Source: Scytonema sp. RU_4_4 (lineage in GTDB: Bacteria; Cyanobacteriota; Cyanobacteriia; Cyanobacteriales; Nostocaceae). Taken from it: a DNA stretch of 47,292 nucleotides. This document shows, piece by piece, positions 3,708 to 18,400 of the stretch. The notes below the pieces were generated by a model that was given only the letters and a program-made list of their open reading frames with translations, was not told where the DNA came from and made no database searches. The translations under genes were made by a program, and so were the position numbers. Location of the stretch: positions 1 through 47,292 of the forward strand of contig JAAUSC010000030.1 of the NCBI GenBank assembly GCA_012031965.1. The letters run 5' to 3'. Within the stretch, counting starts at the first letter, position 1; every line of letters begins with the position of its first letter.

Positions 3708-3831
3708 GTTCAATTGTGATGTCAAAAATCTACACGACTACACAATAGCTGTTGTAGTTCATATCAGTTCAAGAATTAACCTCAAGAATTAAGCAACACA
3801 GTGAATACTAATTCTCTTAAAGGAGAGTGTG

Positions 3832-5286
3832 ATGGCTGAATATTTGTCTCCTGGCGTTTATGTTGAGGAAATACCCTCATTAATCAAACCAATTGCTGGT
3901 GTCAGCACTAGCATCGCTGGATTTATTGGTGTTGTACCAAATTTATTACCAGAGCTGCCTGTATCTGTAGTCAATCAAGAGATTCGTAAGGGCGATGGTA
4001 TAAAAAAAGATTTTGAGCTACCAAAAAAGCACTACCCACTAATAATCCCAGAGCAAGATCAAGAGAAAAATTATCAGTTTTATGTAAAAGAAAATAGTGG
4101 TGTAGTCACAAAAATCGACGCTACCCTCAGAAATGACGAAGACAATCAGGTAGCTATAGTAACGCTTAGTCAAGAGCCTCCATTGACACAAGAACAAGTC
4201 CTTATAGGAGATTACAAGCATGTATTTAAACCTGTGCCTGTTGGTGAGGTTAAGCTATGCACTAACTTTACTGAGTTTACAAAATTCTTTGGTGACTTCA
4301 GCACCAATCTCGAACAAAATAGACTAGCTCATGCAGTGTATGGATTTTTTAACAATGGTGGATCTCGCTGCTATGTAGTGCGGGTAAATAAACAAAATGA
4401 CATTAACAACCAATTCCTAGAGCGGACATTTGAGCCGATTGACGAAATTGCAATAGTCGTAGCTCCAGGCATAACAGACGATGCTATTCGCGATGCTATT
4501 ATCACTCACTGCCAGCAGAAAACTCAAGACCGTTTTGCCATCTTTGATAGCCCAGAAGTGGTAGGGGATGATAAATTAGTTGATCTAACCAAGCTTTCCC
4601 TGTCTGATCCTGAAAACGTCCAGCCAAATCATTCAAACTACGCTGCTTTCTATTTTCCCTGGATAGAAGTTTTTGACCCAGCGACTAAAGACGACCCAAA
4701 GACTAAAGGTCGCAAATTTGTTCCGCCCAGCGGTCATATTGCTGGAATATATGCCAGAGTTGATACTAGTGTAGGAGTACATAAAGCCCCTGCAAATGAG
4801 GTTATATTAGGTGCACTAGGACTGAAGTACAACATTAGCAAGGCTCAACAAACATTGCTAAATCCTCAAGGTGTCAACTGTATCCGCAACCTCAACGGTA
4901 ACCTTCTGGTGTGGGGAGCAAGAACTATTGGTGGAGATGCTAACTCCGACTTGAAATATATCAATGTCCGGCGTACGCTGCTGTTCCTTAGGGAATCTAT
5001 TGATGAAGGCACGCAATGGGTTGTTTTTGAACCAAATACCCCAAATTTGTGGAAGAGAATTACTCGTAATGTCTCGGATTTCTTAACTACTGTCTGGCGT
5101 TCCGGGGCATTGTTTGGTGACACTCCTCAACAGGCGTTTTACGTCAAGTGCGATGCTGAAACAAACCCTCCAGAAGAGCGAGAATTGGGTCGAGTGGTTA
5201 CGGAAATTGGGGTTGCGATTGTCCGTCCTGCGGAATTTGTCATCTTCCGCATCAGCCAAGTTACACCTCTAACGAGCGGTTCTTGA
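3832..5286 (+). CDS. Phage tail sheath family protein 1 (Afp2-4-like)
   Basis: A 484-aa contractile sheath subunit. The N-terminal YLSPGVYVEEIPS and IAGVSTSIAGFIG motifs and the C-terminal FYVKCDAETNPPEERELG plus EIGVAIVRPAEFVIFRI block are the sheath family signature: the C-terminal strand donates to the neighbouring subunit. An insertion of roughly 70 residues (about residues 45-115) sits between the N-terminal arm and the NFTEFTKFFG motif and is probably a surface domain. The ATG at 3832 is chosen over the adjacent GTG at 3829 because AAGGAG (3820-3825) gives a spacing of 6. A second sheath gene follows 48 bases later. Confidence 0.95.
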   Translation: MAEYLSPGVYVEEIPSLIKPIAGVSTSIAGFIGVVPNLLPELPVSVVNQEIRKGDGIKKDFELPKKHYPLIIPEQDQEKNYQFYVKENSGVVTKIDATLRNDEDNQVAIVTLSQEPPLTQEQVLIGDYKHVFKPVPVGEVKLCTNFTEFTKFFGDFSTNLEQNRLAHAVYGFFNNGGSRCYVVRVNKQNDINNQFLERTFEPIDEIAIVVAPGITDDAIRDAIITHCQQKTQDRFAIFDSPEVVGDDKLVDLTKLSLSDPENVQPNHSNYAAFYFPWIEVFDPATKDDPKTKGRKFVPPSGHIAGIYARVDTSVGVHKAPANEVILGALGLKYNISKAQQTLLNPQGVNCIRNLNGNLLVWGARTIGGDANSDLKYINVRRTLLFLRESIDEGTQWVVFEPNTPNLWKRITRNVSDFLTTVWRSGALFGDTPQQAFYVKCDAETNPPEERELGRVVTEIGVAIVRPAEFVIFRISQVTPLTSGS

Positions 5287-5334
5287 ACGAACGGTTAACC
5301 CTCTCGCGTCCCTTACAAATCATGGAGGCTTTTC

Positions 5335-6753
5335 ATGCCAACAGTCTATAAGACTCCGGGGGTTTACAGAGAAGAGGTTTTTCTACAACCCCAAGAAGCA
5401 TTGCCTACTGGCATTCCTGCATTTATTGGGTTTGCTTGGGCGATCGCACCTTTAGAACAATTGCCACGAGGAATTGAGTTTCCTAAATCTCTTCCTGACC
5501 GCCTTAAAGGCAAAATCTATTATGATTCAAAGAAAAAGCTCCTGGTTTTTCCAGGCGTCATGAGCGCAGACATCAGGGATGAGTTGTTAAGACTCTCAGA
5601 AGACTTATTATTCGACGAAAAGGAAGACTTATTATTATTCAAAAAGGCAATACAGTCCCTTTTTGAAAATACTCAACAAGTTGTCAGTCTGCACCGCAAA
5701 CGAGACTTTGACAATGAGTTGCTCCCTCTACCTGAGAGCTACTTAGCAGAAGCGGTAAACGGTTTTTTTGAAAATGGCGGTATCCGTTGCTATGTGGCGC
5801 GTGCCGTTCCTGAGTCAGACAAGAGAAAAGAGGCGCTTATTCAAGCTTTGAATGTATTAGAGCCTTTGAACGATATAGACTTGGTTGCAATTCCTGATGC
5901 TATGACATTGCATCCAGACAGGCAAGCTATTATCGACGTGCAGCAAGCAGCCTTACAACACTGTGCAACTTGCGGCGATCGCATTGCCATACTGGATGCA
6001 CTACCCAGCCTAGAGAATGGTCAGCCGAAACTCACACTTAAGGATGAGGTTATATGGCAACATGACCGCCTTGTCAATCAACAAGAAGTTTTTAACGGAG
6101 TCTTATATTTCCCTTGGCTAAAAAATGCTCAAGATTATCCCAAGCAAGATAATCAATTAGAGAAAGGTCGTTTAGTACCGCCTTGCGGACATGTTGCTGG
6201 AATTATTGCTCGTAGCGATCGCAACCGTGGTGTCTTCAAAGCCCCAGCCAACGAAGAAATCTATGATGCCCTCGATTTGGAAGTGCCTGTTGACAACTCA
6301 ATTCAAGACGAGTTGAACCCTTTAGGCATTAATTGCCTGCGGGCTTTTCCAGGTAGAGGAATTCGCGTCTGGGGAGCGCGGACGCTTGCGGGTAACGATC
6401 CCAACTGGCGTTATGTCAACGTTCGGAGGCTGTTTCTTACTCTCACCCGCTGGATTGACCAGAATATGTTCTGGGCAACTTTTGAGCCGAATGGTCCATT
6501 ATTGTGGCTGCGGATTCAACGAGAACTAAGTTTTCACCTAGAGACGTTTTGGCAGGCAGGTGCTTTGCAAGGAGAAACTCGCCAGCAAGCATTTTACGTT
6601 AAATGCGATGAAGAAACAAATCCACTAGAAAACCGCGAAACTGGACAGGTTGTCACTGAAATTGGTCTTGCTCCCAATGCCCCAGCCGAATTCATAATTG
6701 TTCGTATTGTTCACCGCATCAGTGCACCTGAAATCATACAGCCTTACATATAA
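5335..6753 (+). CDS. Phage tail sheath family protein 2 (Afp2-4-like)
   Basis: A 472-aa paralogue of the preceding sheath protein with the same N-terminal YKTPGVYREEV arm, the GFFENGGIRCYV motif, the PPCGHVAGIIARSD motif and the C-terminal FYVKCDEETNPLENRETG block ending in EFIIVRIVHRI. The variable insertion after residue 45 differs completely from that of sheath 1, so the two probably present different outer surfaces. A good ribosome binding site, GGAGG (5324-5328), precedes the ATG. Afp and PVC also use several sheath paralogues, usually one main type plus special rings near the baseplate. Which one is the bulk sheath here cannot be told from sequence. Confidence 0.95.
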   Translation: MPTVYKTPGVYREEVFLQPQEALPTGIPAFIGFAWAIAPLEQLPRGIEFPKSLPDRLKGKIYYDSKKKLLVFPGVMSADIRDELLRLSEDLLFDEKEDLLLFKKAIQSLFENTQQVVSLHRKRDFDNELLPLPESYLAEAVNGFFENGGIRCYVARAVPESDKRKEALIQALNVLEPLNDIDLVAIPDAMTLHPDRQAIIDVQQAALQHCATCGDRIAILDALPSLENGQPKLTLKDEVIWQHDRLVNQQEVFNGVLYFPWLKNAQDYPKQDNQLEKGRLVPPCGHVAGIIARSDRNRGVFKAPANEEIYDALDLEVPVDNSIQDELNPLGINCLRAFPGRGIRVWGARTLAGNDPNWRYVNVRRLFLTLTRWIDQNMFWATFEPNGPLLWLRIQRELSFHLETFWQAGALQGETRQQAFYVKCDEETNPLENRETGQVVTEIGLAPNAPAEFIIVRIVHRISAPEIIQPYI

Positions 6754-6801: not shown

Positions 6802-7230
6802 ATGGCAGCCGATGATCTTCCATACCGTGGCTTTAATTTTAAGGTTGAAATTGATGGTATCAGCGAAGCTGGCTTTCAAGAATGCAGTGGTTTAGATGTG
6901 ACAACCGATCCCGTGGAATACCGGGAAGGAGCTGACCCGAACCATGTACGCCATCTAACAGGACTCAACAAATACGCACCCATTACACTCAAACGCGGTG
7001 TTAGCGACTCCTCCAGCCTCTGGGATTGGCGGCAAAAGGTGATTGATGGCAAGACCGAACGTAAAAACGTATCAATTGTATTACTCAATGAAGCCCGAGA
7101 GGAGAAATTACGCTGGAACCTGAGTAAAGCATGGCCTTCCAAATGGACAGCTCCCACCTTTAACTCTACTAGCAACGAAGTAGCGATTGAATCATTAGAA
7201 ATTGTCTACGACGAAATGAAGAAAGGTTAA
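6802..7230 (+). CDS. Tail tube protein 1 (gp19 family, Afp1/Afp5-like)
   Basis: A 142-aa inner-tube protein of the T4 gp19 family: the N-terminal YRGFNFKVEIDGISEAGFQECSGLD motif, the VEYREGADPNHVRHLTG segment, the LKRGVSDSSSLWDWR motif and the C-terminal SNEVAIESLEIVYDEM strand. Hexameric rings of it form the rigid tube expelled on contraction. The length is normal for the family. It has the strongest ribosome binding site of the region, AAGGAGG (6789-6795), consistent with high copy number. A hairpin follows 23 bases after the stop and may limit read-through. Confidence 0.95.
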   Translation: MAADDLPYRGFNFKVEIDGISEAGFQECSGLDVTTDPVEYREGADPNHVRHLTGLNKYAPITLKRGVSDSSSLWDWRQKVIDGKTERKNVSIVLLNEAREEKLRWNLSKAWPSKWTAPTFNSTSNEVAIESLEIVYDEMKKG

Positions 7231-7311: not shown

Positions 7312-7674
7312 ATGCTACAAACTGAATTTACCTTTACTCTACCAATGGGTTACGTTGATGAAGAAGGCAATCTGCATCGAGAAGGCGTTATGCGTTTGGC
7401 AACTGCCCTAGATGAAATTGCCCCTCTCAAAGACCCCCGCGTGCGAAGCAACCAAGCATATCTGCTCATGATTTTGCTCTCAAGAGTCATTACTAAACTC
7501 GGCACCCTGGAGTTTATCACTCCTAAAGTGATTGAAAACTTGTTCGCAGGTGATTTAGGCTATTTGCAAGACCTCTACTGCCGGATTAATAAAAATGGGC
7601 ACGATCGCGTCCGTACAAACTGCCCTCACTGTGAAAAACAGTTTGATGTAGAACTGAGTAGTATGGGGGGATAA
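7312..7674 (+). CDS. Tail-assembly-chaperone-like / T4-baseplate-like eCIS protein
   Basis: A 120-aa protein beginning with the EFTFTLPMGYVDEEGNLHR strand and an acidic MRLATALDEI segment, followed by a helical middle (NQAYLLMILLSRVITKLG) and a C-terminal TNCPHCEKQFDVEL half zinc-ribbon. Short proteins of this type follow the tube gene in many eCIS and phage clusters and are annotated as tail assembly or T4-baseplate-like. The position after the tube gene equals that of lambda G or similar tail-assembly chaperones. The frame ends GGG GGA TAA at 7666-7674, overlapping the DUF6760 frame. No clear Shine-Dalgarno precedes the ATG at 7312. See the frameshift entry at 7665-7712. Confidence 0.75.
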   Translation: MLQTEFTFTLPMGYVDEEGNLHREGVMRLATALDEIAPLKDPRVRSNQAYLLMILLSRVITKLGTLEFITPKVIENLFAGDLGYLQDLYCRINKNGHDRVRTNCPHCEKQFDVELSSMGG

Positions 7675-7712
7675 TTGGCTACCCCTTAGAGCGGCTGTAT
7701 AAGGAGGTAGCC
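7665..7712 (+). promoter_or_regulatory. Candidate programmed -1 ribosomal frameshift site (slippery heptamer plus hairpin)
   Basis: G GGG GGA (7665-7671) is an X XXY YYZ heptamer in the zero frame of the 120-aa gene, directly before its TAA stop. Five bases (7672-7676) separate it from a stem: GGCTACC-CCTTA (7677-7688) pairs with TAAGG-A-GGTAGCC (7700-7712), 12 pairs with one bulged A (7705) and an 11-base loop. Slipping back by one base keeps Gly-Gly pairing and leads into the DUF6760 frame, giving a fusion of about 173 aa. The sequence elements are seen directly; their function is inferred. Confidence 0.6.
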
Positions 7713-7832
7713 TACATTGCCTATCACTTCCATTGGTCGCACGAACATGTTCTAACGCTAGAGCATACAGAGCGCTTGCGTTGGGTTGCAGAGATTGCTG
7801 ACATCAATCAACGCTTTAACGAACAACTTTAA
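7671..7832 (+). CDS. DUF6760 family protein, readable only by -1 frameshift or non-canonical start
   Basis: The frame is open from 7662 to the TAA at 7830-7832 and encodes IIGYPLERLYKEV followed by AYIAYHFHW, the LEHTERLRWVAEI motif and a DINQRFNEQL end. I recognise this as DUF6760, a small family found in eCIS clusters at this place between the two tube genes. No ATG, GTG or TTG codon is in frame except a TTG near the C-terminus, so it cannot start normally; ATT (7674) or ATA (7671) would be the only local choices. Translation as a -1 fusion with the preceding gene explains this best. A single missing G (seven instead of six) would also fuse the two frames. The function is unknown. Confidence 0.7.
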   Translation: MIGYPLERLYKEVAYIAYHFHWSHEHVLTLEHTERLRWVAEIADINQRFNEQL

Positions 7833-7852
7833 TAACTAGGAGTTAACAACCG

Positions 7853-8335
7853 ATGCCTTCTTTGGGTATGAATGCTGCCTATGGTGCTGGCAGCAGTATT
7901 GCAGGTGCTACGCTTGACCCTTACCATGCTTTTAATTTCTTGATTGAAATTGAAGGAATTTTGGTCGGAGGTTTTTCTGAGTGCAGTGGTCTGGAAGTAG
8001 AAACAGAGTACTATGATTACCGTGAAGGAGGTGTCAATGAATATATGCACCGCTTTATCGGTCCAACTAAATATCAACCCCTGGTCTTAAAACACGGGCT
8101 GACCGTAGTTAATGGTTTGTGGACTTGGCATCAAGAAGTTGTTCAAGCAATTGATACAGGCAAGTTTAAACGTCGAAACGGCACGGTTTACTTGTTAAGC
8201 AAGCAAAAAATTCCAGTCAAGTGGTGGAACTTTAAAGACGCTTTTCCTTGTAAGTGGACTGGACCACAACTTAAGGCTGACTCTGGCGATGTTGCTTTCG
8301 AGAGTGTAGAACTTGCCCATCGAGGATTGAGCTAA
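7853..8335 (+). CDS. Tail tube protein 2 (gp19 family, Afp5-like)
   Basis: A 160-aa second member of the gp19 tube family with the conserved YHAFNFLIEIEGILVGGFSECSGL start, the YDYREGGVNEYMHRF segment, LKHGLTVVNGLWTW and the C-terminal SGDVAFESVELAHRGL strand. It is slightly longer at the N-terminus than tube 1. In Afp/PVC a distinct tube paralogue forms the first ring that joins the spike/baseplate to the bulk tube; the position next to the LysM and spike genes fits that role. The ribosome binding site AGGAG (7838-7842) precedes the ATG. Confidence 0.93.
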   Translation: MPSLGMNAAYGAGSSIAGATLDPYHAFNFLIEIEGILVGGFSECSGLEVETEYYDYREGGVNEYMHRFIGPTKYQPLVLKHGLTVVNGLWTWHQEVVQAIDTGKFKRRNGTVYLLSKQKIPVKWWNFKDAFPCKWTGPQLKADSGDVAFESVELAHRGLS

Positions 8336-8461: not shown

Positions 8462-11400
8462 ATGACACCTATGGCAGAGTCATATCAACAACCTGCAACA
8501 CAGACAAACGATACGTTACCATCTTCCACGCATATTCAGCGCCTTGAGGATCGCCGCACTGAACCTTCTGGAATAGTTGATGTTCGACCATTCCAATCTC
8601 GGTTTACCCGTGTACCAGAGTGGATAGTGCAGCGTTCGGCTGTGCTAAATGGAATACTAAAACGCTATGGCAGTCAAAACAATACTTCAGCAGAAGAAGC
8701 TGATTTAGTACTTGTTGCTCCGTCACAAGCAGTCCCTAGAGATGAAACTCCTACCTTTGAAACCGCAACTCAAACAACAACACCATCTTCTGTACCAATT
8801 GCCCGTGCTAGTCGCCCAGAGTTAACAATTCAACGCAGTTCCACTCCTACACAACCCTCTCCTACCCCCTCAGTCCCACAACAGTTTCCACAACAGAGGG
8901 AATCCCAACGCCAGTCGCCGTTGACTGTGAAGAACCCTCCCGCAGCGCCGACTTTGCAACGCACTGCTTCCCCCTCCCCCTCATACTCCAGCCTACGGCT
9001 CGCTCCGCTAACATCCCCCTCATCCCCCAGCCTACGGCTCTCTAGCCCCGTAGGGGGCGCTGCGCAAACGCTAACATCCTCCTCATCCCCCAGCCTACGG
9101 CTCGCTCCGCTAACATCCTCCCCTCCTCCCTCTGGTCAATTTCGTGTAAGCCGCAAGGCAATTCCCTTACCCAAACTTCAGGCAAGCACTTCATCCCAAA
9201 CTGAATCAAGTTCATTACTTCCTACAAATACTCCGCCAAATTCCACACTCGTTTCAGCTAAAAAAGACTTGGGAGAGGGAAAAAGCGCAGATGAGGACGA
9301 AGGTTCTACCATAATTTACTCGTCAATTGATGCTTCAAACCATCCTCCTGTGGCTGAGGAAATAACTCCTATATCGCACCAATCCCAAAATCCCGAACCA
9401 TCGCTAATTTTCCCCAAACGCCTTTCACAAAGCTCTACTAATAATTCTGAGAATTCTAGTTTTTCATCCCAGTTAGGGATGGAAAATGTCTCTAGCAATC
9501 AAAACTCTATTAAAACAGATATTTCTCAACCAAGTATAAATCAGCAAACACTAACTAGAGAAATTGCAACCAAGCCAGAAGTTTCTCAAATCTCAACACA
9601 ATCTCTGATATTGCCAAAACGCCTTCAAGAATCTTCACCAACGATTGGTGGTACTCATATTACTTTAGATGGTGATAGAAAATGGCTAGTTGAACGCTCA
9701 TTGAATAAAGATAAATCAACTCATGAACCTCTTTTATTTGCTAATAATAACACTCAGCTTCGACGAATTTATATTGAAAATAAAATACGAAACAATCAGT
9801 TACAAGAATCAAAAAAATCGCTAATTTTACCAAAATACCTTTCACAAAGCTCTACTAATAATTCTGAGAATTCTAGTTTTTCATCCCAGTTAGGGATAGA
9901 AAATGTCTCTAGCAATCAAAACTTTATAAAAACAGATATTTCTCAGCTAACTATAAATCAACCAGTACTCGCTAGAGAAATTGCAACCAAACCAGGAATC
10001 TCTCAAGCATCAGCACAATCTCTGATATTACCAAAACGCCTTCAACAAGAATATTCGCCAACTACTGGTAGCGCCCATATTACCTTACAAGGTACAGTGG
10101 GACACTCGGCTAGTCAGCGAAATTCAACCAAGCAAAATATTGCACAAATCCCTAAAGAGAACACTCAATATCGACGAAATATAATTGAAAAGGAAATACG
10201 AAAATATCAGTCCCAAGAATCAAAAAAATCGCTAATTTTACAAAAAAGACTTTCACAAAGTACTGATTCTTCTGAAGATTCTAGTTCTTTATCCCAGTTA
10301 GGGATAGAAAATGTCTCTGGCAATCAAAACTTTATTAAAACAGATATTTCTCAGCTAACTATAAATCAACCAGTTCTCGCTAGAGAAATGACAACCAAAT
10401 CAGGAATCTCTCAAGCATCAACACAATCTCTGATATTACCAAAACGCCTTCAACAAGAATCTTCACCAACTGCTGATAGCGCTCATGTTACCGTAGAAAG
10501 TAGAGTGGAACGCTCCGCTCTTCAGAGAAACTCAACTCAGCAAAATATTGCACAAACAGCTACAAATAACACTCAACATCTACCACCGATTGTTGGAGAA
10601 ATTACTGCTATCAATCAATTTTCACAGTCAGAACAATTTCTGATATTACCAAAACACTTTTCACATGGAGCTAAAAATGATGAAAATTCTAGTTCTTCAT
10701 CGTCATCAAGGATAGAAAGTGCCTCTAGCAATCAAAATACTAATAAAAAAAATGTTTCTCAAAAAACTATAAATCAATCTACACTAGCTAGAGAAATTGC
10801 AACCAAACCAGAAATTTCTCAGATGCCAACACAATCTTTAATATTACCAAAACGATTTCAACAAGAAACTTCACCAACTTCTGGTAGGAATCATGTCACC
10901 TTACAAGATGGCATAGAACGGTCATCTAAGCAGGATAATTCAACTCAGCAAAATATTGCAAAAGTTTCCACAAACAATGCTCAAAACCAATTACCTATTG
11001 TTGGGGAAATTGCATCCACGTTACATGAATCCTCACAACCAGAACCATCGCTGATTTTACCAAAGCGCTTGAGTGAAGCCTCTACTAGCAATGCTGAAAG
11101 TTCCGGACGATCTCGCAATTTACCCATAAGTACGTTGCAAAGGAAAGTAGGACGTGAGAGTAGTTTAAAGACTTCTGTTGTCGCGAGCGCGCGTAGCGCA
11201 GCGCCCTTACGGGCGATCGCCTCAGAAATTCCTTCGACTGAGAATTCGTTAGAACAACAGAACATGGTCTGGCGTAAAAGTGTGAGTACAGCCTCATCTG
11301 AAAACTTGCTTTCTCATGTCAGCAATAGCAACCATCAGGCTGAGATGCCTCTAGCAATCAATTCAGTAAGAGGAGAACAATATATTGCTCGCAAAATCTC

Positions 11401-11599
11401 AACCACATCCAGCCCTAACTCTATTACAACAGCAGAAGTGAACAACGCAAGACAGACCACAACTCAAACAACACCAGCGCAAACAAACACACAAACCAAT
11501 GAAATCAATGTGGCGCAGATTGCCGAACAGGTGAGCCGTATTCTGCATCGCAACCTATCTATTGAACGCGAGCGTCGGGGGATGAACCTATGGTACTAG
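8462..11599 (+). CDS. Large Ser/Gln/Thr-rich repetitive eCIS protein with conserved C-terminal helix
   Basis: A 1045-aa low-complexity protein. Residues about 1-75 are more ordered and include a PEWIVQRSAVLNGILKRYG segment. Residues 75-310 are Pro/Ser-rich. Residues 314-862 are four tandem units of 136-139 aa plus a partial fifth, each with two SLILPKRL motifs about 68 aa apart. The final ~35 residues (INVAQIAEQVSRILHRNLSI then ERERRGMNLWY) form a charged amphipathic helix of a type seen at the end of proteins encoded at this place in other eCIS clusters. There are no signal peptide and no long hydrophobic helices. It overlaps the LysM gene by 10 bases. A length-ruler, sheath-lumen or cargo-tether role is possible; it does not resemble classical tape measures. 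Confidence 0.8.
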   Translation: MTPMAESYQQPATQTNDTLPSSTHIQRLEDRRTEPSGIVDVRPFQSRFTRVPEWIVQRSAVLNGILKRYGSQNNTSAEEADLVLVAPSQAVPRDETPTFETATQTTTPSSVPIARASRPELTIQRSSTPTQPSPTPSVPQQFPQQRESQRQSPLTVKNPPAAPTLQRTASPSPSYSSLRLAPLTSPSSPSLRLSSPVGGAAQTLTSSSSPSLRLAPLTSSPPPSGQFRVSRKAIPLPKLQASTSSQTESSSLLPTNTPPNSTLVSAKKDLGEGKSADEDEGSTIIYSSIDASNHPPVAEEITPISHQSQNPEPSLIFPKRLSQSSTNNSENSSFSSQLGMENVSSNQNSIKTDISQPSINQQTLTREIATKPEVSQISTQSLILPKRLQESSPTIGGTHITLDGDRKWLVERSLNKDKSTHEPLLFANNNTQLRRIYIENKIRNNQLQESKKSLILPKYLSQSSTNNSENSSFSSQLGIENVSSNQNFIKTDISQLTINQPVLAREIATKPGISQASAQSLILPKRLQQEYSPTTGSAHITLQGTVGHSASQRNSTKQNIAQIPKENTQYRRNIIEKEIRKYQSQESKKSLILQKRLSQSTDSSEDSSSLSQLGIENVSGNQNFIKTDISQLTINQPVLAREMTTKSGISQASTQSLILPKRLQQESSPTADSAHVTVESRVERSALQRNSTQQNIAQTATNNTQHLPPIVGEITAINQFSQSEQFLILPKHFSHGAKNDENSSSSSSSRIESASSNQNTNKKNVSQKTINQSTLAREIATKPEISQMPTQSLILPKRFQQETSPTSGRNHVTLQDGIERSSKQDNSTQQNIAKVSTNNAQNQLPIVGEIASTLHESSQPEPSLILPKRLSEASTSNAESSGRSRNLPISTLQRKVGRESSLKTSVVASARSAAPLRAIASEIPSTENSLEQQNMVWRKSVSTASSENLLSHVSNSNHQAEMPLAINSVRGEQYIARKISTTSSPNSITTAEVNNARQTTTQTTPAQTNTQTNEINVAQIAEQVSRILHRNLSIERERRGMNLWY
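8989..9116. repeat. Intergenic-type palindromic repeats inside the coding region
   Basis: CAGCCTACGGCTCGCTCCGC followed by TAACAT occurs at 8989-9014 and again at 9091-9116, with a diverged copy in between (9028-9076, containing TAGCCCCGTAGGGGGCGC). These are typical intergenic repeats of filamentous cyanobacteria, but here they are translated in frame as SLRLAPLTS-like peptides. Confidence 0.7.
9401..11124. repeat. Four long coding tandem repeats (408-417 bp) plus a partial unit
   Basis: Units start at 9401, 9818, 10229, 10637 and 11048 (partial). Units 1-3 share long nearly identical stretches, for example the segment encoding SSNQNFIKTDISQ; units 4 and 5 are more diverged. The unit number is likely to vary between strains through recombination. 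Confidence 0.85.
11180..11221. repeat. GCGCGTAGCGCAGCGCCC-type repeat translated in frame
   Basis: A GC-rich cyanobacterial repeat ending in a HIP1 octamer is embedded in the 1045-aa gene, where it encodes VVASARSAAPLRAIAS between AT-richer sequence. The reading frame is kept. Confidence 0.55.
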
Positions 11600-12291
11600 C
11601 AGGAGCTGCATCAAAAAGCGTAACCAAGTTAGAAATTCAACCGCTCAATCCTTTAACCATGTCACCAAGCGGGAAACCAATCAAAGTAGCTTTTAATCCC
11701 AATTCCTATTCAATTACAAAGAGTGTAACTTGGAAAACTCCAGACAGCACAACAGGTGACGGGAAAACACAAGAATTACTCAATGCCCCTAAATTAACTT
11801 TTGGTGGTGGCAGCAGTCGTATACTTACCATCAATGAGCTTTTTTTTGATGTCACTGAACCAGGTAGTGGAAAGGATGTTAGAGCAAAAACCAACGAGAT
11901 AGTTGCGCTCACCCGCATTAACAGAACTTTTAAACAGCCTCCAGCCTGTCGCGTAAGTTGGGGGACTGCTCCAAGTGGTTCTGACTTTCCTTTCGATGGG
12001 GTGATCACAGATTTAACACAAACGTTTACGCTTTTTAAAAAAGACGGTACTCCAGTTCGGGCGACGTTGAGTGTTACCTTCACAGAATATCTAAAACCAA
12101 AGGATGACCAACGCAAAACTGACCCAGAATTAACTACCCACACGGTCAAACGCGGCGACAGTCTAAGCAGCATTGCAGGTAAACTCTACGGAGAACCAAC
12201 CCTCTGGCGCTTAATTGCGGAAGCTAACGGTCTGGACGACCCGCGCCTGCTGCAGATTGGCAAGGTTTTAACTATTCCAGAAGTCTACTAG
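11590..12291 (+). CDS. CIS tube-associated LysM protein (Afp7/Cis7-like)
   Basis: A 233-aa protein. Residues about 14-175 form the domain typical of Afp7/Pvc7 and gp53-like baseplate proteins, with the FNPNSYSITKSVTW motif, the LFFDVTEPG segment and the PPACRVSWG motif. Residues about 183-233 are a C-terminal LysM domain (HTVKRGDSLSSIAGKLYG through GKVLTIPEVY). In Afp/PVC this protein forms the inner baseplate ring that clamps the first tube layer to the spike; the LysM there is structural. The ATG lies inside the end of the 1045-aa gene (overlap 11590-11599), which indicates tight coupling. Confidence 0.9.
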   Translation: MVLAGAASKSVTKLEIQPLNPLTMSPSGKPIKVAFNPNSYSITKSVTWKTPDSTTGDGKTQELLNAPKLTFGGGSSRILTINELFFDVTEPGSGKDVRAKTNEIVALTRINRTFKQPPACRVSWGTAPSGSDFPFDGVITDLTQTFTLFKKDGTPVRATLSVTFTEYLKPKDDQRKTDPELTTHTVKRGDSLSSIAGKLYGEPTLWRLIAEANGLDDPRLLQIGKVLTIPEVY

Positions 12292-12472
12292 GGGGTTAAT
12301 CAACACAAATATGACGGTTGTTTCCAGAACTGACTTTTCACGGCATGTGGAAAAGGTGATTGTGTGGGTAACACACGCCCTGATTTTGACCTTCATCATT
12401 TTCATTAATCTAAAATTATTGAGAATGAGGCTGTGGAAAAAGCTACGCTGTTTCGTGGTTTGAGGACTTCCC

Positions 12473-13573
12473 GTGAAAAGTAAGGCTTCTAAAGAACTGT
12501 TTCTACCAGATTTTGATGTTCTCGTTAACAAATCGCCGATACCTCTGAATGCAGAGTTGCAGTTAATTCGCATTACAGTTGATGAGGATGTGAATATACC
12601 TAGTATGTTTACTTTGGAATTTGCTGGACTAGACGAGCGACCATTACCTGATATTCCATTGATTGACAAACCCAATCTCTTTGAGATTGGTGGTGAGATT
12701 ACAGTGAAACTGGGTTATCACCACGGTAAAATAGAACCTGTGATCATAGGCGAGATTACTGCCCTAGAGCCAGAGTTTCATTTCCAATTGCCGCCTAGCT
12801 TAAAAGTGCGGGGTTACGATCGCCGCCATAGACTGCTCAGAGGTCGCAAAACTCGAACATTTCTCAACAAAACAGACAGCCAGATTGCAACTCAAATTGC
12901 TCAGGAGGCAAAGTTAACCCCCCAGGTCATAAATAGTAAAGTGAAGCATGAGTACGTGCTGCAAGCAAACCAAACAGATTGGGAATTTTTGCAAGCCCGT
13001 GCCCGTCAGATTCAGTATGAGGTGGTCGTAGAAGACAAAAAGCTGTTTTTCCGACCTGTGGGTAATAACAAGCCCCAGATTATGACCTTAACCTTTATGG
13101 ATGATTTGCTGGAGTTTTACCCTCGTGTCTCTGCTATGGGTCAGGTTGATGAAATTACCGTGCAAGGATGGGACCCTTTGCTAAAAAAACAAAAAATCGT
13201 CGGGCGCGGGAGAAAGGAAGTCTCCAAGATGGGTGGGAAAAAAAGTGGAGCAGCGCAGAGTCAAAAAGCCTTTAGCAAGGCTACTGGAGTTTCGATCTCT
13301 CACCCGATTAGAACTCAGCAAGAAGCTGATCAACTTGCCAACGCTAATTTTAATGCTGGAGTACTCAGTTTTATTACAGGTGAAGGAGTGTGTCACGGAC
13401 GCACAGATTTAAAAGCAGGCAAAGTTATCAAAATTGATGGCGATCGCATCGGTAAACAGTACCGAGGACAGTACTACGTCACCGCAGTCAATCATCGCCT
13501 CAACGCTAGGACTAGCCACTATGGTCCTGGTGGTTACTACACTCATTTCACTGTTCAGAGAAATGCTTTTTAA
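12473..13573 (+). CDS. Phage late control D / VgrG N-terminal-like spike protein (Afp8 N half)
   Basis: A 366-aa protein of the gpD/gp27-like family. The N-terminal FLPDFDVLVNKSPIPLNAEL strand, the EITVKLGYHHGKIEPVIIGEI beta-barrel motif and the FLNKTDSQIATQIAQEA helix are typical, and the C-terminal YYVTAVNHRLNARTSHYGPGGYYTHFTVQR strand is the hallmark end of gp27-like hub domains. It forms the trimeric hub below the tube. The start is GTG at 12473, supported by TGAGGA at 12461-12466. The OB-fold/spike half is encoded by a separate gene at 13824, so the Afp8/VgrG protein is split here. The gap of 182 bases upstream holds nothing obvious. Confidence 0.9.
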   Translation: MKSKASKELFLPDFDVLVNKSPIPLNAELQLIRITVDEDVNIPSMFTLEFAGLDERPLPDIPLIDKPNLFEIGGEITVKLGYHHGKIEPVIIGEITALEPEFHFQLPPSLKVRGYDRRHRLLRGRKTRTFLNKTDSQIATQIAQEAKLTPQVINSKVKHEYVLQANQTDWEFLQARARQIQYEVVVEDKKLFFRPVGNNKPQIMTLTFMDDLLEFYPRVSAMGQVDEITVQGWDPLLKKQKIVGRGRKEVSKMGGKKSGAAQSQKAFSKATGVSISHPIRTQQEADQLANANFNAGVLSFITGEGVCHGRTDLKAGKVIKIDGDRIGKQYRGQYYVTAVNHRLNARTSHYGPGGYYTHFTVQRNAF

Positions 13574-13585
13574 TGGTTGATGGTT

Positions 13586-13729
13586 ATACCAATTCTCAAT
13601 GAAGATGCACTTAATGTTTATTAAACGATTAGCAACAAGACGCCTTCGCGTAGCGTGCGCCTGCTGCGCATAGCACGCGCCCGAGTGAAAGAGTAAGTAT
13701 TAAGTGCAAGTTTACTCCAGAATTGGTAT
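13586..13729. repeat. MITE-like element with ATACCAATTCT ends
   Basis: ATACCAATTCT at 13586-13596 is mirrored by AGAATTGGTAT at 13719-13729, and the similarity continues inward (TGCACTTAAT and ATTAAGTGCA). The GC-rich centre has GCGTAGCG/GCGC palindromes. It lies between the two spike genes. Confidence 0.65.
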
Positions 13730-13823
13730 TAGTAGTTAGTAGTTAATCGTTCTTTTTGGCAATTAACAACTAGTACCTGCTAATTTCCATTCTTAATAAA
13801 ATTTCAAATGGAGTATAACAATC

Positions 13824-14474
13824 GTGAGTTTATTTGAAGTACTGGTTGACACGCAAACGCAGCAGGAAATGTCCCAGAAGATTTATGGAGTAGTGATTGG
13901 AATTGTTAGCAATATCAATGACCCGAAAAAGCTAGGACGGGTAAAAGTCAAATTTCCCTGGTTAAGTGATAATGATGAAAGCTATTGGGCACGCATCGCT
14001 ACACCAATGGCAGGTTCGCAACGAGGATTTTATTTTATACCAGAAATTAATGATGAGGTGCTTGTTGTCTTTGAACATGGAGACGTGCGTTTTCCTTACA
14101 TTCTTGGTGCTCTGTGGAATGTTAAAGATGTTCCTCCTCCAGAGGCGAAACTTGACGGGAAAAATAACATTCGCCTGATTAAATCCCGTAGCGGTCATGT
14201 GATCTCTTTAGATGATACAAAAGGACAAGAAACTATCGAAATTCTTGATAAGAGTAAAAAGAACAGCATAAAAGTTGATACAAAAGCCAATACTATTACC
14301 ATCACAACAGACAAAGATATTACACTCTCTGCCCCCAAAGGTATCATCAAGTTAGATGCCAAACAAATTGAAATAAATTCCAAAAACACAACCAACATTA
14401 CAGCAAAAACAGGGATGAATATCGAGGCTACCGCCAATATGAATATCAAAGGCAGAATAATAAATCTTAATTAG
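13824..14474 (+). CDS. Phage baseplate assembly protein V / gp5-like spike (Afp8 C half)
   Basis: A 216-aa protein. Residues about 20-100 are the gp5/VgrG OB-fold (IYGVVIGIVSNINDPKKLGR, VKVKFPWLSDNDESYWARIA, GFYFIPEINDEVLVVFEHGD). The remainder is a beta-helix spike with repeating short strands (KVDTKANTITITTDKDITL, INSKNTTNITAKTG). It makes the membrane-piercing needle with the PAAR tip. The start is GTG at 13824, with GGAG at 13810-13813. It is separated from the hub half by a 250-base repeat-containing gap, unlike the single Afp8 gene. Confidence 0.93.
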   Translation: MSLFEVLVDTQTQQEMSQKIYGVVIGIVSNINDPKKLGRVKVKFPWLSDNDESYWARIATPMAGSQRGFYFIPEINDEVLVVFEHGDVRFPYILGALWNVKDVPPPEAKLDGKNNIRLIKSRSGHVISLDDTKGQETIEILDKSKKNSIKVDTKANTITITTDKDITLSAPKGIIKLDAKQIEINSKNTTNITAKTGMNIEATANMNIKGRIINLN

Positions 14475-14476
14475 TT

Positions 14477-14630
14477 AGAGGTCATTTATAAAGTAAATCT
14501 TAAGAGCCTGATTGATGTATTTTGTAGGTTGGGTCGAGGTGACCAGACCCAACTAAGAAGATAAATATTGGGTTTCGCTGCGCTCTACCCAACCTACACA
14601 GACTTAATCTTTACTTTATAAATCAACTCT
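14477..14630. repeat. MITE with ~21-bp imperfect terminal inverted repeats and GTAGGTTGGGT core
   Basis: The left end AGAG-N3-ATTTATAAAGTAAA (from 14477) is mirrored at the right end by TTTACTTTATAAAT-N3-CTCT (to 14630). Inside, GTAGGTTGGGT (14524-14534) pairs with ACCCAACCTAC (14587-14597). The core is shared with the elements at 385 and 29459, but the outer ends differ. Confidence 0.75.
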
Positions 14631-14662
14631 TAGTAGTTAGTAGTTAGTAGTTAGTAGTTAGT
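14631..14662. repeat. Heptamer tandem repeat (TAGTAGT)
   Basis: Four to five copies of the 7-base unit TAGTAGT lead directly into the PAAR gene start. Short tandem heptamers are common in heterocystous cyanobacteria. They occupy the place of the PAAR ribosome binding site. Confidence 0.8.
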
Positions 14663-14666
14663 AATT

Positions 14667-15056
14667 ATGAGAAAACCAGCAGCAAAACAAGGGGATACAA
14701 TAGTAGCAATCGACACACACCTTGTGATTGTTCCACCGGTTGCGGCACCTGTACCTACGCCTTTGCCATTTAAGGGTACCATTACTGCCAATCTCAGCCC
14801 CAATGTCAGAATCATGGGGATGCCAGCCGCGACGGTCGGTAGTATCGCTATTAATATACCACCGCATATTGTTCCACCTCCAGGTTCATTTGTGAAACCA
14901 CCTGCTAACAGAGGCACGATCGTATTTGGTAGTGCCACAGTTAAAATTAACGGCAAAATGGCAGCGAGGCTTGATGACCAGGCTTTAACTTGCAATGACC
15001 CAGTAGACCTGCCAGTAGGACGGGTAATTGCGAAAGGCACAGTCTTTATTGGTTAA
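14667..15056 (+). CDS. PAAR-like spike tip protein (Afp10-like)
   Basis: A 129-aa Gly/Pro/Ile-rich protein of the PAAR/DUF4280-like type: KPAAKQGDTIVAIDTHLV, then repeated short beta segments with PV.P.PLPFKGTI, MPAATVGSIA and GSATVKINGKMAARLDDQA, then the end GRVIAKGTVFIG. It caps the spike as a sharp cone. The ATG at 14667 follows a TAGTAGT heptamer array with no recognisable Shine-Dalgarno, so translation may be weak, fitting one copy per particle. The gp25 gene follows 13 bases later. Confidence 0.9.
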   Translation: MRKPAAKQGDTIVAIDTHLVIVPPVAAPVPTPLPFKGTITANLSPNVRIMGMPAATVGSIAINIPPHIVPPPGSFVKPPANRGTIVFGSATVKINGKMAARLDDQALTCNDPVDLPVGRVIAKGTVFIG

Positions 15057-15069
15057 TAAGGAGAGTAAG

Positions 15070-15470
15070 ATGTCTAAACCGTTTTTGGGAAAGGGTGTAG
15101 GCTTTCCGGTGACCGTGGAAAATAATGGCGCACTTGCCCAAGCCGCGCATGAAGAAAGCATTCGCCAGTCGGTTTGGATTATCCTTGGTACTGCCAAAGG
15201 TGAACGGGTTATGCGCCCAGATTTCGGCTGTGGAATTTACGATTTGGTATTTGAAGTGAATTCGCCTTCCACTGTTGGAAGGTGTCTCAAGCTGTACGAG
15301 AGGCGTTGCTTCTGTTTGAACCACGTATTGACGTACTGGATGTGCAGGTAGGGTCAGTTTCTGACTCTGAGGGAGAGAAACTGTTAATCAACATTGACTA
15401 TCAAGTTCGGGCTACCAATAACGTCTTCAACCTGGTTTATCCCTTTTATCTAGAAAGGAGTGCAGGCTGA
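15070..15470 (+). pseudogene. GPW/gp25 family baseplate protein (Afp9-like), frame broken by one base
   Basis: ATG at 15070 with GGAGAG just upstream. The first frame gives MSKPFLGKGVGFPVTVENNG through GCGIYDLVFEVNSPSTVGR (71 residues). From about 15282 the homology continues in the -1 frame as VSQAVREALLLFEPRIDVLD, through INIDYQVRATNNVFNLVYPF, to the TGA at 15468-15470. One extra G in AAGGTG (15279-15284) would restore a 133-aa protein, the usual gp25 length. gp25 is an essential wedge/baseplate-sheath nucleator, so loss would disable the particle unless a paralogue or frameshifting rescues it. No slippery heptamer is present. A true mutation or a homopolymer sequencing error are the options. 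Confidence 0.85.
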
Positions 15471-18400
15471 TGGCAAAACCGCCACCTATTGACTCTCGCA
15501 CGGCAAAGGATATCGCCGAACAGGTGCAACAACTGTTAAAGGCGTATGATGTACCTGGTTGGACAGGCGATCGCCCGGTTGTAGAAAACAGTTCTGCTAC
15601 TGCACTCGTTAATATCTTTGCCCGTTACGCCGAAATTATTATTCAACGGCTTAACCAGGTGCTGTATAAAAATTTCTTGGCATTTCTGGATCTGTTAGGT
15701 GTATCATTGCTACTGCCTCAACCAGCTAGAGTACCATTATTGTTCACTTTAGCAGAAGGCAGTGACGTTGATGCTTTTGTTCCTGCCGGAACTCAAGTGG
15801 CAGCACAAGTTGCTGAGGGTGAAAATGAACCAGTGATTTTTGAAACAGAACGTAACTTGGTAGTTACGGCAGCACGATTGGAATCTATCTTTGTGCGTCA
15901 ACCTCAGGAAGATTCTTATAATAATTACACTAGTGATGATATTAATATAACTATTTATAAAAGTGATAGTGCTGAAAATAAAGTATTACCTGTTCCAGCT
16001 TTTGAAGGTAAAGACCCAATTGATTATCATTTCGATATTATTAGCAATACTCTACTAAAACATTCTGATTTGCAAACTTTAACCTTGACTTTTTCGCTCA
16101 AGGAAGATTTGCAAAATCCAGATTCTCCCTCTTTAGAATGGAAAATTTGCAATGGACTGCAATGCTCCACCATTTCTAACATGAACGACCAAACATCCAA
16201 TTTAACGAGAAGCGGTACAATTGTTTTTAATAACATTGGCGAAGTTATTAAAAAGATTTCTAATTCAGAGAATTTAGAGAATTTAGAGAATTTAGAGCCA
16301 AAATTTTTGCTGCGTTGCCGATTAAAAACTTTTATTTCTCAACAATCTAAACGACCTTTTATCAACAGTGTCAGTTTGCAAGCAACATTTGGCAATACCG
16401 GACAACCTATAGAAGAAGCATTTGCCAACTTACTACCACTTGATTTGAGCAAACCTTTTTTCCCATTTGGAGAACAGCCCAAATTCGGTGATACACTGTA
16501 TTTAGCAAACCAGGAAGCCTTTTCAAAAAGCGGTGCAATTGTCACTCTTCATATAGACTTAGCGAATCTTGCATCTGCCGGAATACCATTACCCATTACA
16601 AGCAAAGAGCCAAATGCTACATTGGAATGGGAAGTTTGGACGACTCAGGGATGGGTTTCTGTAGGAACTTCTACACAATCTGGTCCTGAAGCAGATTTAT
16701 CGCCACCAGAGGTAAAGTTTCAGGATACGACTAAAGCCTTTACAGATCCTGGAGTTGATAAAGTCGTAAAATTTATCTTACCCGAAAACTTGCAGCCAAC
16801 AACCGTTAATGGAATTGAAAACTTTTGGCTGCGAGTGCGGATTAAATCTGGCAATTATGGCGAAGATGCTCGTTACGAAAAAAATGAGAACACTTTTGGA
16901 GGGTTCAGTTTCGTTCCTGCAAGTTTCAAACCACCCTTGATTAACTCGTTAAAAGTAGACTACACTTTGACGACTCCACAACAGCCACCTGAAGCTATAG
17001 AAACCTATAATGATTTCAGATCTCAACGAATTCCTTCTGGTTCGGGGTTTGAACCATTTAAACCTATTGCTGATGATCAGCCAATCCTCTATCTAGGTTT
17101 CAGTACACCAGAGAACTACAACAGCTTTCCCAATCTCACTCTTAGTATTTACTTTCAGGTGGAAGATGTTGTTTATGATCCAAACTTAAAGACTAACAAT
17201 TCCTCTCCAAATTCCTTATCTTCGCCATCACCACGCCTAAATTGGGAGTATTGGAGTGGCAAAAGTAACCGATGGGAAAGGTTGTTCGTGCAGGATGAGA
17301 CTGAAGCATTTACTCATTCAGGATTGGTGGAATTGTTACCAACGGAAGATTTTGTTGCAAAACAAGATTTTAACTTACAGAAAAAACTTTACTGGCTGCG
17401 CGTGTATAGGGAACCAAGTTCTGGTGAATATTTTGTGAAACCCCAGTTAAAACGAGTTCTGCTAAACACAACGATCGCCATTCAAGCCCTCACTATCAGC
17501 GATGAAATTCTCGGTTCCAGCAATGGCGCAGAAAATCAAAGCTTTCGCACTACACAATCGCCAGTCCTGAAGGGAGAATACCTGGAAGTTAGAGAACTAG
17601 AAATGCCCACAAGTGAGGAACAAGAAAGTATCAAGAAAGTACATGGTGAGAATGCAATTTCCGAAATTCTTGATGAAACCGGACGACCTGAAGAAATTTG
17701 GGTGCGCTGGAGTGAAGTACCGGATTTTTATGGTTCGCAACCGCGCTCGCGCCACTATATCATCGACCGTAACTTAGGAGAAATTCGCTTTGGCGATGGC
17801 TTAAGAGGACTCATTCCGCCACTTGGCATTGCAAATGTGCGGATGAAGAGATATCAAGCGGGAGGTGGGACAAAAGGTAACCAACCCGAAAACACTATTG
17901 TCCAACTTCAAACGACCGTTCCTTTTATTGACACAGTGACTAATCCAGAAGCAGCAACAGGAGGTGCTGATGCCCAAGCATTAGATGAGTTAACAGAACT
18001 CGGACCACGCACCGTTCGCCACGGAGGGCGTGCCGTCACTTTTGAAGACTATGAAGACCTAGCAATGCAAGCGACACCAGAAGTCGCACGGGCAAAAGCC
18101 GTACCCTTGCTCAACTTGTCTGCAAAGCCACTAGATATTCAAACTTTTAACCCACTCGTCGGTGAAAATTTATTGTCGTTCCAGCCACCCAAAGCCCCAG
18201 GCGAAGTAAGCATCATCATCGTGCCTCGTACTTCCAACCTCAAACCTTTGCCTAGCCAAGAACTCATGCAGCGTGTTCAAAACTATTTAGAAAGCCATGC
18301 TATTGGAACTGCAAAAATATGGGTGGTAGGTCCGGTGTATATAGAGGTCAGTATTACTACAACTATTGTTCCAACATCTTTAGAGAGAGCCAGTGCAGTA

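What the first reader, a model, noticed from the sequence alone, without database searches (positions are those of the whole stretch)
7662..7832. Candidate programmed -1 frameshift fusing a tail-assembly-chaperone-like protein to DUF6760 in an eCIS
The DUF6760 frame has no ATG/GTG/TTG near its start and lies in the -1 frame of the 120-aa gene. The last codons of that gene form G GGG GGA, an X XXY YYZ heptamer in the correct phase, immediately before its stop. A 5-nt spacer is followed by a 12-bp stem (7677-7688 with 7700-7712) with one bulged A. Long-tailed phages make tail-assembly chaperones (lambda G/GT) by just such a -1 shift, right after the tube gene; here the gene sits in the same place. 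A programmed frameshift in an injection-system gene would link eCIS assembly to the phage chaperone mechanism. The caveat is that one missing G in the run would also explain the break, and would fuse the two frames outright. In either case the real product appears to be a fusion.
Basis: partly seen in the sequence, partly recalled or inferred. Interest (0 to 1): 0.92.

Follow-up and report, generated by a model that had tools for sequence, protein, structure and literature searches.

The report
Ribosomal frameshift in bacterial injection machines
Bacteria and archaea that build phage-tail-like injection machines appear to make one assembly protein in two lengths by having the ribosome slip back one base at a conserved signal, a trick known from phage tails and, in the literature we could search, not reported for these machines.

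Summary
At 7665-7671 the 120-aa gene (7312-7674) ends on an in-phase G GGG GGA, followed by a 5-nt spacer and a 12-bp hairpin (7677-7712). DUF6760 lies in the -1 frame with no ordinary start codon. It is not a lost G: of 222 distinct DUF6760 junctions from bacteria and archaea, 213 have the upstream gene in the -1 frame, and 194 of those carry GGGGGA/G there. The hairpin is selected at RNA level: it folds far better than synonymous recodings (mean z -3.7 against about -0.6 in control segments, 90 loci), its codons are nearly fixed, and the pattern alone finds only this locus (36 of 36 hits, 99 genomes). The 0-frame protein resembles phage tail assembly chaperones; DUF6760 resembles the E' part of phage P2 E+E', itself made by a -1 frameshift. 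Best explanation: a programmed -1 frameshift yields a 120-aa chaperone and a ~173-aa chaperone-DUF6760 fusion for building the injection tube. A few lineages instead have an overlapping ATG, and one a duplicated chaperone fused in frame. Nothing was measured at the bench; efficiency, ratio and function are inferred.

The parts
7312..7674 (+). 0-frame gene, 120 aa: tail-assembly-chaperone-like protein (TAC; the E / gpG analogue), with a C-terminal CPxC zinc-ribbon-like motif
   Evidence: phrog_508 tail assembly chaperone E 3e-8; all 48 aligned sequences (window plus 47 relatives) hit phrog_508; 10 of 48 hit Phage_TAC_7 and 11 of 48 Gp41_Mu weakly; predicted fold mean pLDDT 85.7
7665..7671 (+). 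slippery heptamer G GGG GGA, in phase
   Evidence: GGGGGR at or beside this column in 194 of 213 -1 junctions
7672..7676 (+). 5-nt spacer between heptamer and hairpin; contains the 0-frame stop TAA (7672-7674)
7677..7712 (+). stimulatory hairpin: 7677-7688 paired with 7700-7712, A7705 bulged
7662..7832 (+). -1 frame: DUF6760 domain, 56 open codons plus stop; analogue of the E' (T) domain
   Evidence: PF20546 E 7e-20; profile match of the family to the P2 E' family
7312..7832 (+). inferred fusion product, about 173 aa: TAC through the slip site, then DUF6760
   Evidence: arithmetic from the two frames; not observed
6802..7230 (+). tail tube protein (gp19-like) just upstream
   Evidence: PF06841 E 1e-50
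7853..8335 (+). second gp19-like tube protein just downstream
   Evidence: PF06841 E 2e-38
3829..6753 (+). two tail sheath genes (3829-5286, 5335-6753)
   Evidence: PF04984 and PF17482
1827..2414 (+). Pvc16_N tail terminator, an eCIS hallmark
   Evidence: PF14065 E 2e-30
11590..15056 (+). CIS_tube/LysM protein, GPD hub, baseplate V, PAAR genes of the same eCIS cluster

Best explanation
This is a programmed -1 ribosomal frameshift signal at the end of a tail-assembly-chaperone gene of an extracellular contractile injection system (eCIS). Most ribosomes stop at 7672-7674 and make the 120-aa chaperone. A fraction pause at the hairpin, the glycyl-tRNA on GGG slips back one base on the G run, and translation continues in the -1 frame to give a ~173-aa chaperone-DUF6760 fusion. 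Shown here by comparison: the frames, the conserved signal, its RNA-level selection, and the resemblance of the two halves to phage P2 E-type chaperones and E'. Inferred: that slippage happens on the ribosome, how often, and that the short form coats a tape-measure-like protein while the DUF6760 form recruits the tube protein, as gpG/gpGT do in lambda.
For: Frame: 213 of 222 distinct junctions have the chaperone in the -1 frame relative to DUF6760; 5 of the 213 have the upstream stop before the junction column. Thinned to 76 representatives below 75% identity, 70 are -1 and 56 of those 70 have GGGGGR. Record titles include Cyanobacteria, Chloroflexi, Streptomyces, Myxococcota, Deltaproteobacteria, KSB1, Clostridia, Nitrospirota, ANME-1 and Methanoperedens. 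Start codons: 135 of 186 GGGGGR loci have no ATG/GTG/TTG in DUF6760 codons 1-5, and ATG occurs there in 16 of 186. RNA selection: hairpin z below -1.64 in 174 of 186 GGGGGR loci against 13 of 27 others (Fisher p 3e-8); in 90 of the 186 loci, drawn at random, the junction averages z -3.69 and four control segments -0.56 to -0.68. Nearly fixed codons: Tyr6 TAC 180/184 against Tyr20 75/164; Glu14 GAG 180/185 against Glu43 80/156; Val15 GTA 153/172 against Val41 42/162. On 59 chosen junctions the helix pairs in 97.7% of cells against 26-70% when slid, with C-G to U-A swaps in three sequences at one pair and two at another. Two Streptomycetaceae loci shown (L100, L109) form a hairpin from other bases. 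Four archaeal loci (L218-L221, of 8) have in-phase G GGA AAU instead, and Haloferax larsenii G GGA AAC. Homology: DUF6760 against the P2 E' family, hhalign P 2e-7, prob 93.7, against at most 0.9 in 20 column shuffles; the P2 record annotates E and E+E' by -1 frameshift between FII and the tape measure T. In-frame fusion: L039 has a free chaperone gene followed by a second copy fused in frame to DUF6760.
Against: No frameshift product has been measured. The common slip form, G GGG GAA/GAG, is not a canonical X XXY YYZ: the A-site tRNA can re-pair only with a G:U in the middle, or the P-site tRNA must slip alone; PMC10885494 (passages) gives the G:U argument for GGGGGAA in actinophage chaperones. 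51 of 186 GGGGGR loci have an ATG or GTG within the first five DUF6760 codons, and if the range is widened to 90 nt upstream through codon 13, only 70 of 186 have no possible start. Of the 19 -1 loci without GGGGGR, ten show no convincing slip site: L191, L193, L196, L197 (ATGA overlap), L222 (overlapping start, only a far-upstream GGGAAAC), L177-L180 (separate genes), L252. Two of the four ATGA loci still have some hairpin (z -2.0 and -1.7), and two of the four archaeal G GGA AAU loci have none that stands out (L218 -1.2, L220 +0.5); L213 and L181, with G GGA AAG, also lack one (-0.1, -1.1). Pair covariation is modest: the number of pairs changed on both sides (2) was reached in 67 of 500 shuffles and the number of pair types in 318 of 500, though the covariation score and cells paired were not. 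A Shine-Dalgarno-like stimulator upstream is enriched in 110 loci but not in Actinomycetota and hardly in the window (z -0.25). The junctions are related sequences, and the sets were capped (80 of 577; at most 30 loci per search).
Confidence: 0.9

Rival explanations
1. Translational coupling: ribosomes that finish the chaperone re-initiate on an overlapping or non-canonical start and make DUF6760 as a separate protein.
For: Four loci from the Streptomyces-phylum search have an ATGA overlap and no slip run (L191, L193, L196, L197). Haloferax larsenii is annotated with an ATG at the overlap. 51 of 186 GGGGGR loci have ATG or GTG within five codons; 116 of 186 have some possible start between 90 nt upstream and codon 13.
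Against: The window has none, and 135 of 186 GGGGGR loci have none in codons 1-5; codon 3 is ATG in only 11 of 186. The 0-frame stop lies beyond the 5' arm (25-46 nt past the site) in 12 of 213 loci. Re-initiation does not need an in-phase G run just before a selected hairpin; the four ATGA loci lack the run and have weaker hairpins (z -0.1 to -2.0). Synonymous variation at DUF6760 position 11 (Leu/Ile) shows that the part before any later start is translated.
Confidence: 0.06
2. A missing G: the break is a sequencing or assembly error, and the real gene is one continuous frame.
For: The window does contain an error-like break elsewhere, in its gp25-like gene.
Against: Independent genomes keep the same frame with the same or a shorter G run (L004, L005, and L050 from a nearly complete genome), as do 213 of 222 junctions overall.
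Confidence: 0.01
3. Transcriptional slippage on the G run makes a mixture of mRNAs.
For: A G run is present in 194 of 213 loci.
Against: The run is five Gs in 155 of 186 loci, short for bacterial RNA polymerase slippage (established knowledge, recalled). A selected downstream hairpin at ribosomal spacing is not expected. Some archaeal and other loci have GGGAAAN instead.
Confidence: 0.03

Closest known systems
Phage P2 genes E and E+E' (Peduovirus)
   Same: Sheath FI, then FII (the tube protein by established knowledge; the record's product field says head closure), then E and E+E' by -1 frameshift; E' resembles DUF6760; Pfam names E in Phage_TAC_7, which 10 of 48 eCIS chaperones match weakly
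   Different: P2 slips at a T run and is followed by the tape measure gene; here a G run plus a strong hairpin, followed by a second tube gene, in a non-phage machine of bacteria and archaea
Phage lambda gpG / gpGT
   Same: Two products from one gene by -1 frameshift; the roles of G and T are described in PMC5009743 (passages). G GGA AAG, lambda's heptamer (recalled), occurs in phase in L181 and L213
   Different: No homology to lambda G or T was tested; DUF6760 is much shorter than a typical T domain (recalled)
Actinobacteriophage chaperone frameshifts at GGGGGAA
   Same: Same slip sequence, named in PMC10885494 (passages)
   Different: Different genes and hosts; the word 'contractile' has 0 occurrences in that paper
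Phage Mu gp41 / FS-gp41
   Same: The window chaperone model matches the predicted FS-gp41 structure, rank 15, E 6e-3; Gp41_Mu weakly in 11 of 48
   Different: 17% identity in the structural alignment
YqbN (3klu) and HK97 tail assembly chaperone (2ob9)
   Same: PDB fold matches ranked 1 and 7, TM 0.43-0.53
   Different: E-values 0.33 and 0.73, so suggestive only; no PDB match at E 0.001 or better

Membership tests
Programmed -1 ribosomal frameshift | Slippery site in phase just before the 0-frame stop | tested here: met
Programmed -1 ribosomal frameshift | 3' stimulatory structure a few nt downstream, selected at RNA level | tested here: met
   5 nt here
Programmed -1 ribosomal frameshift | Both products made | not testable with these tools
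   needs reporter, mass spectrometry or ribosome profiling
Phage tail assembly chaperone G/GT type | 0-frame protein similar to phage chaperones | tested here: met
   phrog_508 in 48 of 48 aligned sequences; Pfam matches weak; fold
Phage tail assembly chaperone G/GT type | Lies just after the tube gene | tested here: met
Phage tail assembly chaperone G/GT type | Tape measure gene downstream | tested here: inconclusive
   8462-11599 is long, repetitive and without a Pfam match
Phage tail assembly chaperone G/GT type | Absent from the finished particle; short form in excess | not testable with these tools
   needs proteomics
P2 GpE / E' (PF06528) | Sequence homology of the -1 domain | tested here: met
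   6 of 14 members hit the Pfam model, best E 0.0045; the window's own sequence does not; family profile hhalign P 2e-7 with controls
eCIS | Pvc16_N terminator with sheath, tube and baseplate genes | tested here: met
eCIS | AAA+ ATPase in the cluster | not tested
   no family search was made for it

The most novel reading that the evidence does not exclude
A recoding signal (slip site, near-fixed spacer, hairpin) has been kept across contractile injection systems of many bacterial phyla and of archaea. It sets the ratio of a chaperone to a chaperone-DUF6760 fusion that governs how the injection tube is built and how long it is. Lineages that lost the signal kept the two functions by other means: an overlapping start, or a duplicated chaperone gene with one copy fused in frame.
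Probability: 0.6. Interest if true: 0.87.

Novelty: new variant of a known kind. Interest (0 to 1): 0.78.

Why it matters
Injection systems are studied and engineered from gene lists. In the two annotated bacterial records quoted here (Rhodococcus and Streptomyces plasmids) this pair is two separate genes, a 'phage tail assembly protein' or 'hypothetical protein' and a 'DUF6760 family protein' with its own start. If the pair is one recoded gene, part of the assembly machinery has been missed, clones made from annotated starts would lack the fusion, and how these tubes get their length becomes testable by changing one slip site. It would also be a frameshift signal found outside phages in both bacteria and archaea.

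Tried and rejected
Missing-G error: rejected on relatives. Pseudogene decay: rejected, since the -1 frame is conserved as protein across phyla. Rfam: no match in 7400-8000 up to E 1. PDB sequence search: no relative for the chaperone; one match for DUF6760 at E 0.8, taken as chance. Phage collection: no tblastn match to the window DUF6760 at E 0.01. The upstream Shine-Dalgarno-like stimulator is left as a minor, lineage-dependent feature. Strict covariation is modest, because four of eight helix pairs never vary in the 59 sequences; the argument rests on synonymous constraint instead. Dropped before counts: of 258 loci held, 256 had DUF6760 by my profile; removing identical 210-nt junctions left 222. 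The 59 rows were chosen by me, nearly all. I left out the Streptomyces-type loci (L100, L109, L115, L117), whose hairpin uses other pairs, loci with an offset site (L055, L104), L073, and others, mostly near-duplicates. (Shine-Dalgarno part) used 90 and 110 of the 186 GGGGGR loci.

Full report
What is there. Window 7312-7674 encodes 120 aa and ends ATG GGG GGA TAA. The -1 frame is open from 7662 to 7829 and encodes DUF6760 with no ordinary start codon. The heptamer G GGG GGA is at 7665-7671, and the hairpin 7677-7688/7700-7712 starts after 5 nt with A7705 bulged. The coordinates in the finding check out. The surrounding genes are those of an eCIS: Pvc16_N, two sheaths, two gp19-like tubes, CIS_tube/LysM, GPD, baseplate V and PAAR.

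Is it an error? Relatives say no. L004 has the same six Gs and the same frame. L005 and L050 have GGGGGAA in the same frame with no length change. A one-base break does exist elsewhere in this window, in the gp25-like gene near 15060-15475, where two relatives are intact. That shows what an error-like break looks like, and this junction is not like it.

How general is it? DUF6760 was found in 40 of 99 genomes of the window's relatives, the window's own included; in 33 of 386 genomes of its phylum; and, for the phyla of genomes reached through named loci, in 16 of 246 (Streptomyces), 16 of 201 (Chloroflexi), 6 of 349, 3 over the cut-off (Nitrosomonas), 10 of 196 (Methanoperedens), 3 of 149 (a Firmicutes MAG) and 60 of 140 (Myxococcota). 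At most 30 loci per search were taken (for example 30 of 67 places). A GTDB scan gave 577 relatives, of which the best 80 were kept. Of 222 distinct junctions, 213 are -1, 2 are in-frame fusions (one, L215, with a match below the Pfam cut-off), 1 is +1, 1 is separate in the same frame and 5 have no chaperone found. In the 213 the heptamer column reads G GGG GAA 96, G GGG GAG 62, G GGG GGG 17, G GGG GGA 11, others 27. Allowing small offsets, 194 of 213 carry GGGGGR; thinned to 76 representatives, 70 are -1 and 56 of these carry GGGGGR. Of the 19 others, six have a canonical GGGAAAN in phase (L181, L213, L218-L221), three have another possible site (L034, L226, L227) and ten have none that convinces.

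Is the RNA itself selected? Yes. In each of the 213 loci the 54 nt from DUF6760 codon 3 on were compared with 100 recodings that keep the -1 protein and use the locus's own codon usage. z was below -1.64 in 174 of 186 GGGGGR loci and 13 of 27 others. In 90 loci drawn from the 186 the junction averaged -3.69, and four other segments of the same two genes -0.56 to -0.68. Codons in the stem are nearly fixed while the same amino acids elsewhere in the domain vary (the same on the thinned set). On 59 chosen junctions the helix pairs in 97.7% of cells, against 26-70% when slid, with three C-G to U-A swaps at one pair and two at another; the shuffle controls are mixed (covariation score 0 of 500, pairs with double changes 67 of 500, pair types 318 of 500). 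L100 and L109 (Streptomyces, Kitasatospora) form a hairpin from other bases. Searching for the signal alone returns 36 hits in 34 of 99 genomes, all at DUF6760 places, and none for the reversed pattern; it returns 8 contigs in the viral collection.

Start codons. 135 of 186 GGGGGR loci have no ATG, GTG or TTG in codons 1-5 of DUF6760. Taking in everything from 90 nt upstream to codon 13, only 70 of 186 have none, so the argument rests on the absence of any favoured start rather than of every possible one: codon 3 is ATC 53, GTA 36, GTC 28, ATA 27, ATT 15, ATG 11 of 186. Re-initiation is a real alternative in a minority: four loci have ATGA and no slip run, and viral contigs L177-L180 have separate genes. 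Four archaeal loci keep an in-phase GGGAAAT (L218-L221, of 8 junctions), with a hairpin that stands out in two of the four.

What are the proteins? All 48 aligned chaperones (window and 47 relatives) match phrog_508 'tail assembly chaperone'; 10 and 11 of 48 match Phage_TAC_7 and Gp41_Mu weakly, best E 3e-4 and 5e-3. The predicted fold matches viral proteins named baseplate or baseplate hub assembly and, at rank 15, Mu FS-gp41, and in the PDB, weakly, YqbN and the HK97 chaperone. DUF6760 resembles the E' domain of P2: 6 of 14 members hit Phage_P2_GpE, best E 0.0045, and profile comparison gives P 2e-7 with prob 93.7 over 29 columns, against at most 0.9 in 20 column shuffles. In P2 the record gives FI (sheath), FII, E, E+E' by -1 frameshift, then T, the tape measure; FII is the tube protein by established knowledge, though the record's product field reads head closure. 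So the eCIS pair looks like the E/E' module, recoding included, with a second tube gene following it here in place of the tape measure.

Two products. In L039 the chaperone gene is doubled and the second copy is fused in frame to DUF6760, which would make both products without a frameshift. 44 of 86 cyanobacterial junctions have two or three chaperone genes in a row.

Literature. Nine searches were made: DUF6760, 0 papers; contractile injection with programmed frameshift, 0; contractile injection system with ribosomal frameshifting, 1; with frameshift and tail assembly chaperone, 2; chaperone slip sites; eCIS and chaperone terms, 168 held two terms, 20 listed; tailocin, frameshift and tail assembly, 1; CIS in Streptomyces and cyanobacteria, 57, 15 listed; ribosomal frameshift, injection system, tail-like, 142 held two terms, 25 listed. 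Keyword passages were looked at in eleven papers on eCIS, phage tails or phages and none of those passages reports recoding in an injection system. The lists were capped and the library lacks most subscription journals, so this is not proof of absence. PMC5009743 (passages) describes lambda G/GT and likely archaeal virus cases; PMC3711429 (passages) reports a phage chaperone cluster with 7% frameshifting. A reference list in PMC13222765 names a 2022 study on T4-like chaperones arguing for a mechanism other than frameshifting (not read).

Limits. Everything here is comparative. The slip efficiency, the ratio, and the assignment of roles to tape measure and tube are inferred from the phage systems.

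Noticed in passing
window 15060-15475: The gp25-like baseplate gene is split between two frames by a single-base difference; two related genomes have it intact. Either an assembly error or a broken gene.
   Followed up: partly
window 8462-11599: A 1045-aa Ser/Thr/Gln-rich protein without Pfam match carries nine copies of a motif like SLILPKRL, about 65-75 aa apart; a candidate tape measure or chaperone-binding protein.
   Followed up: no
44 of 86 cyanobacterial junctions, e.g. L010, L011, L014: Two or three chaperone-like genes lie in a row before DUF6760, suggesting duplicated or specialised chaperones.
   Followed up: partly
L039, about 1159-1650: Natural in-frame chaperone-DUF6760 fusion beside a free chaperone copy, with the stem still recognisable and the G run gone.
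   Followed up: partly
L259 (Rhodococcus plasmid), L261 (Streptomyces plasmid): Public annotation gives DUF6760 as a separate gene with a start of its own.
   Followed up: no
L169-L176, L274-L281: Contigs from a viral collection carry the same signal; they may be eCIS pieces mistaken for viruses. L171 of these has no exact pattern match.
   Followed up: no
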